Below, piece by piece: positions 22,256-61,545 of a stretch of 64,000 nucleotides of DNA. The stretch is from Phyllobacterium sp. OV277 (GTDB lineage: Bacteria > Pseudomonadota > Alphaproteobacteria > Rhizobiales > Rhizobiaceae), in NCBI RefSeq assembly GCF_900104355.1, contig NZ_FNIY01000003.1, forward strand, positions 1 through 64,000, written 5' to 3'. Positions within the stretch are counted from its first letter, which is position 1. Every line of letters begins with the position of its first letter. The position numbers and the translations under genes were made by a program. Below the pieces are notes generated by a model, which saw only the letters and a list, made by a program, of their open reading frames with translations, searched no databases and was not told the DNA's origin.

Positions 22256-22278
22256 AATGCTATCGTGCCGGTATTGTC

Positions 22279-22472
22279 GTGGGTCCTCGGGTTAAACCCG
22301 AGGATGACGAGAGGCAGGGACTATAAGATAACCGTGGATGGCACGTTAGGATGACGGAGTGAAATGCTAACGAGTGTACGCTCTTGCACAATCAAACCAC
22401 TTCTGCATGGCGAGATTATCGTACCACACGCCTCCTCTCCGTCATCCTCGGGCTTGACCCGAGGACCCACAA
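22279..22472. repeat. inner palindromes of the composite repeat, copy 4
   Basis: Two inverted inner units, GTGGGTCCTCGGGTT... at about 22279-22310 and GTCATCCTCGGGCTTGACCC at 22441-22470, separated by about 130 bases of unrelated sequence. The first has TTAAAC in place of the usual TCAAGC. No outer arm is present. The cluster fills the 331-base gap before the ABC-F gene. Confidence 0.82.
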
Positions 22473-22586
22473 CAGGCAGGCAAATCACCCACAAATATCT
22501 CTCAACTCCACTTTCTCGCTCAATCGGCACATATCTCCCCCTAGCACGGCTTGCGAAAAACGCATTTCCCGTGCAAAAGCGCGGCC

Positions 22587-24501: not shown

Positions 24502-24791
24502 TTGCAGAATATAGCTCCCTGCAATCCACCCATCTCCGTCATCCTCGGGCTTGACCCGAGGACCCACGGTTAAGAAGATCAGATGAATCCGTATATTCAA
24601 CAATTTTGAATTATGGGTCCTCGGGTCAAGCCCGAGGATGACGGAGAGATGGAAGCCCGAGGATGACGGAGAGATGGGAGCCATAGGATGACGGAGATAG
24701 GTGGGTTGCAGAGAGCTATATTCTGCAAGCTTTGCGATTAGCGTTCCATCCACACTCTCCCTCATGGTGAGCTTGTCGAACCACGAACCAC
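24502..24791. repeat. composite palindromic repeat, copy 5
   Basis: An inner palindrome pair (about 24537-24567 and 24615-24645) encloses a 47-base loop containing AGATCAGATGAATCCGTAT. It is followed by extra copies of a GGATGACGGAGAGATGG unit (about 24640-24700) and then the right outer arm ending GAGCTTGTCGAACCACG at about 24791. The left outer arm is missing, so the element is asymmetric. The rest of the 455-base gap to the MFS gene, 24792-24940, shows a GAGGGGA...TCCCCTC inverted pair near 24840-24870 and no gene. Confidence 0.86.
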
Positions 24792-27655: not shown

Positions 27656-28245
27656 CACCGTCCCCATTTTGGCGCAGCGGGTGCGTTGGTGGGCTGTGCT
27701 TTGCGGCGTCCCAGCCGGATCAGGCCAAAGAGGGCGACGGCAATCATCGTCAGACCAGCAGGGATAACCCACCGGTCAACCGTAGCCGCACCCTTTCGCA
27801 GAACCAGATCAACCTGCGCCACTTCAAGACCATCCACATCACCGGGCCCTATCTTGAATGTATAGTCACCTGAGACAACCGGATCGATATCCCCCGCCCT
27901 GTCGCGATAGACACGCGGCCCCTGTGGCGATCCCCGGTTGGCTGTCTGGGCGTTGACATAGGACAGCGTTTTGACCAGCACGTCCTTGCCATCGCGGGTG
28001 ACGACAGAAGTCAATGTGCTGCGTCCTTCAGCCGGAATGAAATTGCGCAGCGGCTGCATATCCACAAAAACACGGACAGGTCCGTCGCTATCCTTCAATG
28101 CTACGGTGATTGGCTTGTAGGGGCCGGGTCGGTCAAACACCCGCCATGACCCTATCTCGGCACCGGAAAAATTATAGATGTACCAGGGATAACCGATGCC
28201 AAGCCCGATGCCAGCAATCAAAAGCAACAGCAGCAGCTTGCGCAT
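27655..28245 (-). CDS. membrane protein of unknown function
   Basis: A 196-residue protein with one N-terminal hydrophobic segment (MRKLLLLLLIAGIGLGIGYP) and another near the C-terminus (about 160-182), so most of it should lie in the periplasm between two anchors. The tail is basic and Pro/Ala-rich. I do not recognise a domain. The ATG at 28245 begins one base after the holC stop, and its own stop overlaps the acetyltransferase start, making a three-gene set holC-this gene-GNAT. Confidence 0.75.
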   Translation of the reverse strand: MRKLLLLLLIAGIGLGIGYPWYIYNFSGAEIGSWRVFDRPGPYKPITVALKDSDGPVRVFVDMQPLRNFIPAEGRSTLTSVVTRDGKDVLVKTLSYVNAQTANRGSPQGPRVYRDRAGDIDPVVSGDYTFKIGPGDVDGLEVAQVDLVLRKGAATVDRWVIPAGLTMIAVALFGLIRLGRRKAQPTNAPAAPKWGR

Positions 28246-28246
28246 G

Positions 28247-28696
28247 TCAGGCCTTCTTTTCCCAGCGGCCCTCGGCATTCTGCTGCCAATAGGTCAACAT
28301 ATGCCCTTCTGCCTTCAAAAGCTTCCACTGTGCGCGCGCCTGTTCAAGCTGCATCTGATCGTGCCCGTCAAACATCAGGACAAGCCGTTCATAGGCTTCA
28401 ACATTGCTGGGCGCGGCACCATCCACCAGAAAGCGCACTGTCGCCCCATTCGGATTGCCCTCACCGGTCGTCAATATGACAGGCTGCTCCTGCGGATGCG
28501 GCTCCTGATCCGTGGCATGGGCAAGAAACGATGCGTCGGACCAGGTCCACAGATGATTGTCCAGACTGTCACGCCGCTCCTGCGACCCGGTCTGGATAAC
28601 GACCTTCCATTGGCGGCTGAGCGAGCGTTCGACCAACCCCGGAAGCGCATTTTCCAGTGTCGATTCAGTCAGATGGTAGAACAGGATTTCAGTCAT
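28247..28696 (-). CDS. holC: DNA polymerase III subunit chi
   Basis: A 149-residue HolC. It begins MTEILFYHLTEST and has the chi features LPGLVERSLSRQWKVVIQ, DNHLWTWSDASFLAH and the C-terminal ARAQWKLLKAEGH with W-Q-Q. Chi links the clamp loader to single-strand binding protein during replication. In many alphaproteobacteria holC lies next to pepA, as it does here, though a repeat cluster of nearly 400 bases separates them. Confidence 0.93.
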   Translation of the reverse strand: MTEILFYHLTESTLENALPGLVERSLSRQWKVVIQTGSQERRDSLDNHLWTWSDASFLAHATDQEPHPQEQPVILTTGEGNPNGATVRFLVDGAAPSNVEAYERLVLMFDGHDQMQLEQARAQWKLLKAEGHMLTYWQQNAEGRWEKKA

Positions 28697-28740
28697 TTTT
28701 ACTCATCTGATTGGATATTCGTCACTCGGTTTGGTTGAAT

Positions 28741-29068
28741 GGTTCGTGGTGCGTGGTTCGTGGTTCGTGGTTCGACATAACAACCATGAGGGAGAGGGGT
28801 GATGCAATGCTAATCGCCGAGGGCGCAGAACTTGACTCCTCATACCCCACCAATCTCTGTCATCCTCGGGCTTGACCCGAGGACCCACGGCCAAGGAGAT
28901 CAGATGAATCCGTATGCTCAGCGCCTCTAAGTTGTGGGTCCTCGGGTCAAGCCCGAGGATGACAGAGAATGGAGGATTGCAGGGAGCTAAACTCTGCGCC
29001 CTCGGCGATTAGCATTGCATCACCCCTCTCCCTCATGGTTGTTATGTCGAACCACGAACCACGAACCG
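28741..29068. repeat. composite palindromic repeat, copy 6 (largest, near-complete)
   Basis: The most complete copy: outer arms of about 70 nt (about 28757-28830 and 28995-29068), inner arms of about 34 nt (28854-28888 and 28934-28967), and a 45-nt central loop at 28889-28933 with AGATCAGATGAATCCGTAT. Both outer arms carry TTCGACATAACAACCATGAG, where other copies have AAGCTCACC, so they changed together. The element fills most of the gap between holC and pepA. Confidence 0.92.
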
Positions 29069-29089: not shown

Positions 29090-30589
29090 TCAGCCTTCGA
29101 AATTATCGTGCACCAATCGGTCCAAAAGGCGCACGCCAAAGCCGGAGGCCCAGGACTGGCTGTATTCCGTTGCTGGAGCGCCCATGGCGGTGCCCGCAAT
29201 ATCCAGATGTGCCCAGGCCGTATCACCGACAAAGCGCTTGAGGAACTGTGCTGCAATGATGGCGCCACCAAAACGGGTGCCGATGTTCTTCATATCGGCA
29301 TTTTTCGTATCGATCAGCTTGTCATAATCAGGACCGAGCGGCATACGCCACAATTTCTCGCCCGTTGCCTGCCCTGCATCGAACAATTGCGCTGCGAGCG
29401 TGTCATCATTGGAGAAAAGCCCGGCGCGTGACACACCAAGTGCAACCATGATGGCACCGGTCAACGTGGCAAGATTGACCATGAATTTCGGCTGGAACCG
29501 CTCATTGCAATAGTAGAGCGCATCTGCCAGCACCAGACGGCCCTCCGCATCGGTGTTGAGCACTTCGATGGTCTGGCCGGACATGGACGTGACGATATCA
29601 CCGGGACGCTGCGCATTGCCGTCCACCATGTTTTCCACAAGGCCGACAATACCGACCACATTCACCTTGGCTTTACGGGTGGCGAGTGTATGCAGAAGAC
29701 CTGTCACGGCAGCTGCGCCGCCCATGTCCCCCTTCATCTCTTCCATGCCGGCGGCCGGTTTGATCGAGACACCGCCGGAATCGAATGTGACGCCCTTGCC
29801 GACGAAAGCGATCGGCGCTTCCTTGCCCTTGCCACCCTGCCATTCCATGATTGCGAGGCGCGCCGGACGGACTGAACCCTGCGCAACGCCAAGAAGCGAG
29901 CCCATGCCAAGCTTCTTCATGTCCTTCGGATCAAGGATTTCGACCTTCACATCGAGTTTTTTGAGTTCCTCGATTCGTTCAGCAAATTCGACCGGCCCCA
30001 GAATGTTGGCGGGTTCATTGACGAGATCGCGTGCAAGGTTAACGCCCTCGGCCACGGCTTCGGCATTGGCAAAGGCTTTCTTTGCGGCATGAGGGTCGGC
30101 CACAAGAATGGTGATCTTGGCGGAAGATTTCTCTTCCTTCCCCTCATCGTCGCTTTTGCCCTTCTTGGTTTTATATTTATCGAAGCTGTAGGCGCGCAGC
30201 AGAATACCGAGCGCAAAGTCTGCGGCATTTTCGCCCGAGACCTCTGCCTCAGGCAAAGCAAGAACCACCGAAACATGTTTGGCCTTGCCGATCTTTGCGA
30301 ATGCGGAACCGCCCAGTTTCAGCCAGTCATCGGCTTTCAACTCGGCCGGATCACCCGTTCCAACCAGCACCAGACGGTCCAGTTCAGTCCCCGCAGGCGC
30401 AAGCGTGCTCAGGCTTGCGGCAAGTTTTCCCTTGAAATCCGAGACATCAATGATACGCGACAGCAACGCCTGCCCGACGACAGATTCGGCTTCGCCAGCT
30501 ACCTTACCTTCGCTGGCCAGAAGCAAAACTGCGGTTCCGTTTTCAACGGCAGCAAACTTTGCAAAACTGATGGATGGTCGTTTGGACAT
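29090..30589 (-). CDS. pepA: leucyl aminopeptidase
   Basis: A 499-residue M17 aminopeptidase. The signature NTDAEGRL is at 345-352. The metal-binding segment [12 protein letters not shown] is at about 262-273 and KGDMGGAA at about 286-293. The N-terminal macro-like domain precedes the catalytic domain. It releases N-terminal amino acids from peptides in the cytoplasm. A Lys/Glu-rich stretch (about 139-157) looks like an insertion between the domains. It is divergent from the lptF operon, with 269 bases between. Confidence 0.96.
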
Positions 30590-46565: not shown

Positions 46566-46696
46566 GTGGTTCGTGGTTCGACAAGCTCACCATGAGGGAG
46601 AGGGATGATGAAAGGGAGCTTTATTCTGCAACCTATGCGATAAGCGTTGCATCCACCCTTCTCCCTCATGGTGAGCTTGTCGAACCACGAACCACT
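46566..46696. repeat. composite palindromic repeat, copy 7
   Basis: Outer arms only: TTCGACAAGCTCACCATGAG at about 46577-46596 and its reverse complement at about 46665-46685, both followed outwards by GTGGTTC units. The enclosed part reads GATGAAAGGGAGCTTTATTC, similar to copy 2, and GATAAGCGTTGCATCCACC. It lies between the divergent fabD and rpsF genes. Confidence 0.87.
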
Positions 46697-50964: not shown

Positions 50965-51010
50965 ACATTAACCTTCAAGCCTCCGATGCGGCTGCCCCCA
51001 CTCCCAGTCC

Positions 51011-51110
51011 GTCATCCTCGGGCTTGACCCGAGGACCCACGGCAGAGGGGACTTTTCCGCAATCATGGCGCTGCTCAGCAATGGGTCCTCGGGTCAAGCC
51101 CGAGGATGAC
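51011..51110. repeat. inner palindromes of the composite repeat, copy 8
   Basis: An inverted pair of the inner unit, GTCATCCTCGGGCTTGACCC (51011-51040) and its reverse complement (about 51081-51110), with a 40-base loop unlike the loops of copies 5, 6 and 10. No outer arms. It sits in the 492-base gap between cfa and dnaB; 51111-51395 shows no gene and probably holds the dnaB promoter. Confidence 0.85.
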
Positions 51111-51395
51111 GAAGAGAGAAGCGCACGGATGACGGAGAGAGTGATGCTTAACGATGACGGTGAGAACGTGCTTTTTGATACCGAAGAAGGAGGTGCTCCA
51201 TATCATCGCCGACGGAAGTGCTGATGTGTCAATAGTACCAGACCAAGGAATAAAAGTTTTATCCCCCAAGGCTGTTAATAGCGGGAATCATGGTACCGTT
51301 TCATTCGGACCGTCATTGGTTGTCCAGAGCAGCTTTACACGCCATTTTTAACTGCTTACTGCGGAACAGGTATTGGAATCGGGGCGAAAATTAAC

Positions 51396-58792: not shown

Positions 58793-59110
58793 TGTGGTTC
58801 GATGAGCTCAGGATGAGGTGTGTGGTTCGACAAGCTCGGGATTAAGGGCATTGTTGGCTGCAAGATAATCGTCATGAGTGCAGAATTTAGCTCCCCGCAA
58901 TCCTCCCATCTCCGTCATCCTCGGGCTTGACCCGAGGACCCACAACTTAAAGGCGCTGAACATACGGATTGATCTGCTCTCCTTAGCCGTGGGTCCTCGG
59001 GTCAAGCCCGAGGATGACGGAGATGGGTGGGGTATGAGGAGTCAAGTTCTGCACGTTCGGCGATTATCTTGCATCCACACTCTCCCTCATCCCGAGCTTG
59101 TCGAAGGGGC
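58793..59110. repeat. composite palindromic repeat, copy 10
   Basis: A degenerate copy. The left side has two imperfect outer arms (GTGGTTCGATGAGCTC and GTGGTTCGACAAGCTC). Inner palindromes are at about 58913-58943 and 58989-59022, and a right outer half ends GAGCTTGTCGAAGG near 59107. The 45-nt loop 58944-58988 is the reverse complement of the loop in copies 5 and 6. It fills the gap between a convergent SDR gene and the AraC-type gene. Confidence 0.87.
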
Positions 59111-61352: not shown

Positions 61353-61545
61353 TGGTGCATGGTTCGGCAAGCTCACCATGAGGCGCAAACCTCTCCTCGT
61401 CATCCTCGGGCTTGACCCGAGGACCCATGGGTGCCGCGCTTTAAGATTGTGGGTCCTCGGGTCAAGCCCGAGGATGACGGGGGAGGTAAGCTCCTCATGG
61501 TGAGCTTCATGAGCTTGTCGAAGGGCAAACCACGAATCACGAATA
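61353..61545. repeat. composite palindromic repeat, copy 11
   Basis: Left outer arm GGTTCGGCAAGCTCACCATG (about 61360-61382), inner palindromes at about 61397-61427 and 61449-61481 with a short 21-base loop, and a right outer arm with an internal duplication (GAGCTTCATGAGCTTGTCG, about 61502-61520). It lies between the convergent hydrolase gene and pssA. Confidence 0.86.

What the first reader, a model, noticed from the sequence alone, without database searches (positions are those of the whole stretch)
58944..58988. Same central loop kept in three copies, in both orientations
The loops at 24568-24614 and 28889-28933 and the reverse complement of 58944-58988 all contain a segment like AGATCAGATGAATCCGTAT. 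Loops at 51 kb and 61 kb differ. A conserved loop inside variable arms suggests a functional core or recent spread of one subfamily.
Basis: seen in the sequence. Interest (0 to 1): 0.55.

Follow-up and report, generated by a model that had tools for sequence, protein, structure and literature searches.

The report
Mirror-image DNA repeats with flipping loops
The shared loop is the middle of a known kind of mirror-image repeat scattered between genes of a Phyllobacterium bacterium, and comparison with a sister species suggests that at some of the same places the middle has been turned round, as copying errors between mirror-image arms are known to do.

Summary
A 47-nt loop with the quoted segment lies at 24567-24613 and 28888-28934 (segment identical) and, reversed, at 58943-58989 (2 mismatches); chance expectation 0.01. 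It is the spacer of an inverted pair of CGTC-tagged REPs with at least 40 places in this genome. Arms are nearly invariant (1.95 bits per position) and the loop only moderately conserved (1.03 bits), the opposite of "conserved loop, variable arms". The genus is Phyllobacterium. Of 20 genus genomes, only this one and sister species G012 carry the loop start repeatedly.

The new result is in-place inversion. At 14 orthologous sites the loop has the same orientation in 8, is inverted between colinear flanks in 4 (identity 0.89-0.96; one is the 58-kb copy), and is unclear in 2. The inversions come with swapped or overwritten arms, as template switching between inverted repeats leaves them. By one rule, 4 of 55 evaluable palindromes are flipped (2 REP dimers, 1 T, 1 O) against 0 of 297 controls. 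No RAYT transposase was found. The element is of a known kind; its inversion history is the interesting part.

The parts
58943..58989 (-). 47-nt loop (spacer) of the third copy, reverse orientation
58913..58942 (+). left CGTC-REP arm core of the 58-kb dimer (tag CGTC outside, tail CCA inside)
58990..59019 (-). right CGTC-REP arm core of the 58-kb dimer
58880..59052 (.). segment (loop, both REPs and about 33 nt of arm on each side) that is inverted in place in sister species G012, with colinear flanks; exact breakpoints lie inside the palindrome arms and are approximate
58855..59077 (.). whole imperfect palindrome at 58 kb (arms 108 nt, 78% complementary)
28888..28934 (+). 47-nt loop of the second copy
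28858..28887 (+). left REP arm core of the 28-kb dimer (tag TGTC)
28935..28964 (-). right REP arm core of the 28-kb dimer
28755..29067 (.). whole palindrome at 28 kb (arms 134 nt, 91% complementary; RNA fold -264 kcal/mol)
24567..24613 (+). 47-nt loop of the first copy
24537..24566 (+). left REP arm core of the 24-kb dimer
24614..24643 (-). right REP arm core of the 24-kb dimer
24502..24728 (.). palindromic locus at 24 kb with a tandem partial duplication on its right; rearranged in G012 (best local matches on both strands, family loop not found there)
51010..51111 (.). REP dimer with an unrelated 42-nt loop, same orientation in G012 (0.95)
61398..61479 (.). REP dimer with a 22-nt loop, apparently a shortened family loop
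28770..28791 (+). outer-layer palindrome module (O: GTTCGAC...CATGAGG) around the 28-kb dimer
29031..29052 (-). mate of the outer module around the 28-kb dimer

Best explanation
The loop is the inherited spacer of a family of head-to-head dimers of CGTC-tagged REPs, nested in longer palindromes between genes in a Phyllobacterium species and its sister. Shown: the copies share one arm and one spacer, mostly 44-49 nt, and at orthologous sites the spacer is in the opposite orientation, between colinear flanks, at 4 of 14 sites, together with arm swapping or overwriting. Inferred: the inversions arise when a replication fork, stalled at the hairpin-forming palindrome, switches template between the inverted arms (between sister strands) and back. 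That flips the spacer and can copy one arm onto the other. The loop itself probably has no function of its own. Any role would be that of the hairpin at gene ends (transcript termination or stability), as proposed for REPs in general. How the dimers spread is open; no RAYT was found in the genus sample.
For: Family: at least 40 places (40 of 115 candidates scored). Loops were read from 36 of 39 fetched G000 places and 30 of 30 fetched G012 places; 58 of 63 distinct loops score 14 or more to one consensus on their better strand, the other strand scoring 0 or less. Inversion: L002/L081 0.96, L009/L108 0.96, L016/L095 0.93 and L020/L091 0.89 in reverse against 0.44-0.60 forward, with flanks colinear; all four are reciprocal best loops, and with 60 or 110 nt more on each side the orthologous copy is the better match in all four. 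Arms: at 58 kb the inner 40 nt have changed sides (cross identities 0.88/0.93 against 0.75/0.66 same-side). At L020 the G000 arms match each other at 0.95 while G012's match at 0.66, so one arm was copied onto the other; L016 points the same way more weakly (0.88 against 0.80). Generality: by one rule 4 flips among 55 evaluable C11 palindromes against 0 of 297 control segments, p=0.0005; spacer replaced or unalignable in 40 of 55 against 49 of 297. The mechanism is described in yeast as giving both arm homogenisation and spacer inversion (PMC8604942, abstract and passages). Dimer type, conserved spacers, gene-end positions and lack of a dedicated transposase agree with CGTC REPs (PMC3733652). 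PF01797 (RAYT) found in 0 of 19 genus genomes, while 5 of 14 control genomes ring.
Against: Only two genomes were compared, without an outgroup at these sites, so the direction of each flip is not settled. At L020 another G000 copy (L003) has an equally similar loop (0.894 both), and at L016 the next best is 0.913 against 0.935, so copying from elsewhere is not excluded there by the loop alone. At L002 and L009 the arms look like a plain inversion, which arm-arm recombination would also give. Two further sites are unclear (L005 reverse 0.79; L022 0.64-0.65). Two sites with unflipped loops (L006, L024) have arms that match better crosswise, which needs two successive events. Of the 4 rule-based flips on C11 the O one is only 0.82, and T copies resemble each other closely, so those two are weak. 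Template switching was not observed directly. Spacers here (about 47 nt) are longer than those inverted in the yeast study (2-5 substitutions).
Confidence: 0.7

Rival explanations
1. Ordinary recombination between the inverted arms (RecA-dependent or cruciform resolution) inverts the spacer; no template switching is needed.
For: L002 shows exchange of the inner arms together with the loop. Arms are 108-134 nt long at the 58- and 28-kb loci.
Against: At L020, and less clearly at L016, one arm was overwritten by the other rather than exchanged. Perfectly matching arm stretches next to the loop are 42 nt or less.
Confidence: 0.25
2. A site-specific invertase flips the dimers as a regulatory switch (inverton).
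For: Inverted-repeat architecture and presence in both orientations; elements sit between genes, with an excess between convergent genes.
Against: Rule-based flips also include one T and one O palindrome with unrelated arms, though these calls are weak. Arm changes differ between loci and one arm is overwritten at L020. Invertase genes were not searched for.
Confidence: 0.08
3. Independent insertions or ectopic copying: each species received a different copy at the same site, by chance in opposite orientation.
For: Many sites carry different content in the two species (40 of 55). L022 and L096 share a loop at 0.93 at places without flank similarity. At L020/L091 the copy L003 has an equally similar loop.
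Against: The four inverted loops are reciprocal best matches at 0.89-0.96, while non-orthologous loops average 0.66 (12 of 1067 pairs at 0.85 or more; three of these 12 have matching flanks on at least one side). With arms included the orthologous copy is the better match in all four.
Confidence: 0.1
4. Assembly artefact: short-read assemblers put palindrome cores in at random orientation.
For: G000 is in 26 contigs; palindromes are hard to sequence. Reads were not available.
Against: Perfect arms next to the loop are 42 nt or less at the 13 sites measured, which ordinary reads span. Flipped sites also differ in arm sequence.
Confidence: 0.06
5. The loop is a conserved functional RNA or DNA core.
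For: One consensus in most copies.
Against: Less conserved than the arms (1.03 against 1.95 bits); no common fold; GANTC in 14 of 63; other loops between the same arms in the 17 loci read from other genomes; no Rfam match in the window beyond two tRNAs.
Confidence: 0.05

Closest known systems
CGTC-tagged REPs, head-to-head dimers (Di Nocera et al. 2013, PMC3733652; abstract, passages and sections 5, 7, 14, 15 read)
   Same: CGTC (or TGTC) tag, 8-bp stem TCCTCGGG/CCCGAGGA, 5-nt loop CTTGA, CCA tail, dimers with tags outside, spacers mostly 20-100 bp and as a rule conserved in such dimers, gene-end positions, no dedicated transposase, alphaproteobacterial host, dimers lying inside longer palindromes in some species.
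   Different: Phyllobacterium does not occur in the main text. In-place inversion of the spacer between species was not in the passages and sections I read.
REPINs (Bertels and Rainey 2011, PMC3116915; search listing only)
   Same: Inverted pair of palindromic REPs with a spacer, able to form a long hairpin.
   Different: GTAG-type REPs linked to RAYTs (recalled; RAYT link also stated in PMC3733652); PF01797 found in 0 of 19 genus genomes here.
CIR elements (Chen and Shapiro 2003; not held; described in PMC2229807, passages)
   Same: Intergenic repeats of alphaproteobacteria forming long stem-loops.
   Different: CIRs carry conserved GANTC; here only 14 of 63 loops do.
Inverted-repeat spacer inversion by template switching (Abraham and Hazkani-Covo 2021, PMC8604942, abstract and passages)
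   Same: Spacer inversion, sometimes with arm homogenisation, at inverted repeats.
   Different: There yeast coding sequence with spacers of a few bp; here bacterial intergenic REP dimers with about 47-nt spacers.

Membership tests
CGTC REP superfamily | CGTC (or TGTC/CCTC) tag at one end | tested here: met
   Arm core starts CGTC; GTC has 2.0 bits and the first base 1.5-1.6 bits in 63 copies selected by the arm; 28-kb left arm has TGTC
CGTC REP superfamily | 8-9 bp stem with 4-5 nt loop and CCA tail | tested here: met
   TCCTCGGG-CTTGA-CCCGAGGA, then C, CCA. The usual first A-T stem pair is A opposite C here
CGTC REP superfamily | HH dimers (tags outside) with conserved 20-100 bp spacers | tested here: met
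   definitions in PMC3733652 sections 5 and 14
CGTC REP superfamily | No dedicated transposase | tested here: inconclusive
   PF01797 found in 0 of 19 genus genomes; other transposase families were not searched
CGTC REP superfamily | Extragenic, mostly between convergent or unidirectional genes | tested here: met
   59 of 59 tagged loci on C11 intergenic by midpoint (all three palindrome types); 49 gaps: 24 tandem, 17 convergent, 8 divergent; convergent excess p=2e-5 with a home-made gene caller
REPIN | Inverted REP doublet | tested here: met
REPIN | GTAG-type REP and RAYT in the same genome | tested here: not met
   Tag is CGTC; no PF01797 match in G000
CIR (CcrM-associated repeats) | Conserved GANTC in the repeat | tested here: not met
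   14 of 63 loops; the outer arm layers were not tested
Site-specific inverton | Orientation change at the same locus | tested here: met
   4 of 14 orthologous sites
Site-specific inverton | Dedicated recombinase and fixed recombination site | not tested
   Recombinase genes not searched
MITE / insertion sequence derivative | Target-site duplication and matching transposase ends | tested here: inconclusive
   Of 8 sites inspected, one neighbouring T-type palindrome shows a clean empty site with a 6-7 nt repeat (171734); the one site of those 8 with a REP dimer that is lacking in G012 (560319) has unclear edges; transposase ends not searched

The most novel reading that the evidence does not exclude
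The REP dimers and neighbouring palindromes of Phyllobacterium form a genome-wide set of naturally invertible hairpins whose cores flip and are re-copied often enough to differ within one species or culture. Orientation would then be a fast, heritable variable at dozens of gene ends, possibly affecting read-through between convergent genes.
Probability: 0.12. Interest if true: 0.7.

Novelty: new member of a known kind. Interest (0 to 1): 0.4.

Why it matters
CGTC REPs occur in many alphaproteobacteria, but how they move is unknown (PMC3733652). Orthologous dimers in two sister species give a natural record: sites persist, while cores flip, arms are overwritten and contents are replaced more often than in ordinary intergenic DNA. 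That makes template switching at real palindromes measurable in a bacterium, and it warns that spacer orientation cannot simply be read as insertion orientation.

Tried and rejected
RAYT-driven REPIN: not supported, PF01797 not found. CcrM/CIR link through GAATC in the loop: not supported (14 of 63). Structured RNA loop: not supported. Rfam on the window at gathering scores: only two tRNAs. Arm and outer-module sequences as text in papers: 0 papers. I found no report of in-place inversion of REP-dimer spacers in the listings; I read few of those papers and the library is incomplete, so this is weak. The loop-plus-arm pattern in genome contigs gave 0, but records near the window may be left out there. 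Target-site duplications for the dimers: no clean case. T-palindrome pairs with orthologous flanks: L173/L204 is the same (0.89), L183/L203 is flipped (0.91), and L167/L205, L189/L209 and L192/L214 match better reversed but weakly (0.72-0.78); because T copies resemble each other at up to 0.9, I use them only as support.

Limits and rows dropped. The 14 sites come from 39 G000 and 30 G012 loci, the best-scoring ones, so orthologous dimers with other loops are missed: the 51-kb dimer (same orientation) and the 61-kb dimer (loop shortened) are not among the 14. L025/L100 (loop 1.00, matching flank on one side only) was left out. L029 and L030 repeat L024 and L026; L033, L035 and L040 gave no loop; copies with identical cores were counted once. 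The gene caller covers 78.6% of bases and called the 28-kb gap tandem, although the ORFs at 28196-28738 (+, no Pfam hit) and 29090-30589 (-, peptidase M17) would make it convergent. Control segments came from its gaps and may include missed genes, which would raise their 'same' count.

Full report
WHAT IS THERE. The quoted segment is present as described, and three matches are far beyond chance. In each case it lies in a 47-nt loop between two inverted copies of GTCATCCTCGGGCTTGACCCGAGGACCCA. These dimers sit inside longer palindromes; around the 28-kb dimer, and less well preserved at 24 and 58 kb, the outer layer carries GTTCGACAAGCTCACCATGAGG-like modules. As RNA the 28-kb palindrome (28755-29067) would fold with -264 kcal/mol, and the 58-kb one with -156. 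The 51-kb loop is unrelated as far as can be told.

WHOLE GENOME. The window is the first 64 kb of a 574-kb contig (C11) in a 5.33-Mb genome. A search with 28820-29000 gives at least 40 places (82 matches; only 40 of 115 candidates were scored). I held 39 of them as loci (28, 11; the 40th is the 51-kb dimer) and read a loop in 36. With 30 loci from sister species G012, 63 distinct dimers give the consensus CGGCTAAGGAGATCAAACGAATCTGGATGCTCGGCGCTTTTAAATTA. Mean information is 1.03 bits per loop position and 1.95-1.96 per arm position. Selecting copies by their arms (up to 7 mismatches allowed) inflates the arm value a little. Loop orientation on the contigs is balanced, 18 to 19 in G000 and 15 to 11 in G012. 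The loop has no common fold and folds no better than shuffled sequence.

WHICH ORGANISM, AND HOW FAR THE LOOP REACHES. Loci of G008 and G019, placed in the window's genus by the genome search, are identical over 1667 and 1877 bases to named records of Phyllobacterium sp. KW56 and P. brassicacearum, so the genus is Phyllobacterium. Among 20 genus genomes the loop start CGGCTAAGGAGATCAAACGAA (up to 3 mismatches) occurs 13 times in G000, 13 in G012 and once in G004; the reversed control occurs 3 times in all. The dimer query matches 19 of 39 genomes, own included, in 4 of 20 genera. In the 17 loci read from genomes other than G000 and G012, one per genome, other loops of 24-137 nt stand between the same arms; further matches in those genomes were not read.

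IN-PLACE INVERSION. G012 is colinear with the window contig at 93.8% identity over 0.50 Mb in blocks above 1.5 kb, none of them inverted. Among the 39 and 30 loci, fourteen dimer sites have matching flanks on both sides in both species (orientation of L032/L107). The loop is in the same orientation at 8 (identity 0.87-1.00). It is inverted at 4: L002/L081, which is the 58-kb copy of the finding, L009/L108, L016/L095 and L020/L091 (0.96, 0.96, 0.93, 0.89 reversed; 0.44-0.60 forward). It is unclear at L005/L098 (0.79 reversed) and L022/L082 (0.64-0.65). The four inverted pairs are reciprocal best matches; non-orthologous loops average 0.66. The margin is thin at L016 (0.935 against 0.913) and nil at L020 (0.894 both), but with 60 or 110 nt more on each side the orthologous copy is the better match in all four.

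MECHANISM. The arms tell how it may have happened. At 58 kb the inner arm sequences, up to TTCTGCAC, have exchanged sides together with the loop. Beyond that point G012's right arm matches its left arm where G000's does not. At L020 both inner arms of G000 carry the sequence that G012 has only on the right (arm-arm identity 0.95 against 0.66), while the loop is reversed; L016 is similar but weaker (0.88 against 0.80). At L009 one inner arm has changed sides. At L006 and L024 the loop is not reversed but the inner arms match better crosswise, as two successive events would leave. Inversion of the spacer, sometimes with overwriting of one arm by the other, is what template switching between inverted repeats is reported to produce (PMC8604942, abstract and passages). 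Reciprocal recombination would explain L002 and L009 as well, but not L020, and less easily L016.

GENERALITY AND CONTROL. A search of C11 for long inverted repeats found 60 loci, 59 of them with a G012 site. By one rule (identity at least 0.8 and more than 0.15 better than the other strand) the spacer was the same at 11, flipped at 4 (58905 and 139840 REP dimers; 72654 T family, 0.90; 563996 O family, 0.82) and other at 40; 3 sites were too short and 1 was skipped. Of 297 non-palindromic intergenic 47-mers, 248 were the same, 0 flipped and 49 other. Flips: p=0.0005; replaced or unalignable: p=3e-16. The palindromes are therefore unusually changeable. The T and O calls suggest that flipping is not tied to one arm sequence, but they are weaker than the REP-dimer calls. 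Loops that persist are about as similar between species as other alignable intergenic DNA (median 0.957), so there is no sign of special constraint.

WHAT IT IS CALLED. Tag, stem, loop, tail, head-to-head arrangement, conserved spacer, gene-end position and the failure to find a RAYT match the CGTC REPs of Di Nocera et al. 2013 (PMC3733652; abstract, passages and sections 5, 7, 14, 15). They state as a rule of thumb that head-to-head dimers have conserved spacers, and they describe REP dimers nested in other palindromes. The finding as first written is therefore a new member of a known kind. REPIN membership fails on the RAYT and the tag; CIR membership fails on GANTC in the loop.

GENE CONTEXT. 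All 59 tagged loci on C11 (three palindrome types together) are intergenic by midpoint. Of 49 gaps holding them, 17 are convergent, 24 tandem and 8 divergent, against 22, 139 and 80 of the other 241 gaps of at least 60 bp (convergent p=2e-5). In the window the 24-kb gap lies between an ABC-ATPase and an MFS transporter gene, and the 58-kb gap between a short-chain dehydrogenase and an AraC-type regulator gene, both convergent.

WHAT REMAINS OPEN. How the dimers spread, whether flips are ongoing within a strain, and whether orientation has any effect were not tested. The direction of each flip is not polarised.

Noticed in passing
L185:1135-1530 (G000:C5:94398-94793); also G000:C11:114346-114740 and 512391-512786: A multicopy candidate structured RNA of about 330-400 nt, without a match at Rfam gathering scores in the 8 loci scanned: 11 places each in G000 and G012 (only 11 candidates per genome scored), diverged copies in G004, G016, G013 and G001, found in 6 of 59 genomes, all in the window's genus. 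Fold z-score -4.3 without neighbouring palindrome; alignment of 26 copies with long invariant blocks and 5 of 44 predicted pairs with changes on both sides. In the 8 loci (chosen for a T palindrome) it lies between O modules and T. None listed in the window.
   Followed up: partly
G000:C11:369964-370128 (L137:5964-6128) and others: T family: a palindrome of about 162 bp, arms ...CTCCCCCACAAGGGGGGAGATCA with a 65-nt loop; at least 40 places in G000 (40 of 71 candidates scored; 89-93% identical to the query) and 21 in G012, so perhaps more recently spread than the REP dimers. One site (171734) is cleanly empty in G012 with a 6-7 nt repeat.
   Followed up: partly
G000:C11, e.g. 171568-171895, 292441-292763, 361479-361808: Several T palindromes lie directly beside O palindromes, forming mosaics.
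   Followed up: no
L052-L057 (other genomes of the genus): The same REP arms enclose a 132-137-nt loop whose ends resemble CGGCAAAGGAG...CTCCTTTGCCG with internal TCCAG...CTGG-like parts in most, perhaps an older, longer form of the dimer.
   Followed up: no
L022 and L096: Loops 0.93 identical at places without flank similarity in G000 and G012, a candidate for a moved or ectopically copied dimer.
   Followed up: no
L006/L083 and L024/L099: Inner arms match better crosswise although the loop is not reversed, suggesting repeated flips with different breakpoints.
   Followed up: partly
window 22275-22474 and 46566-46695: Orthologous sites occupied by different palindrome types in the two species (REP pair against O module, and the reverse).
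   Followed up: partly
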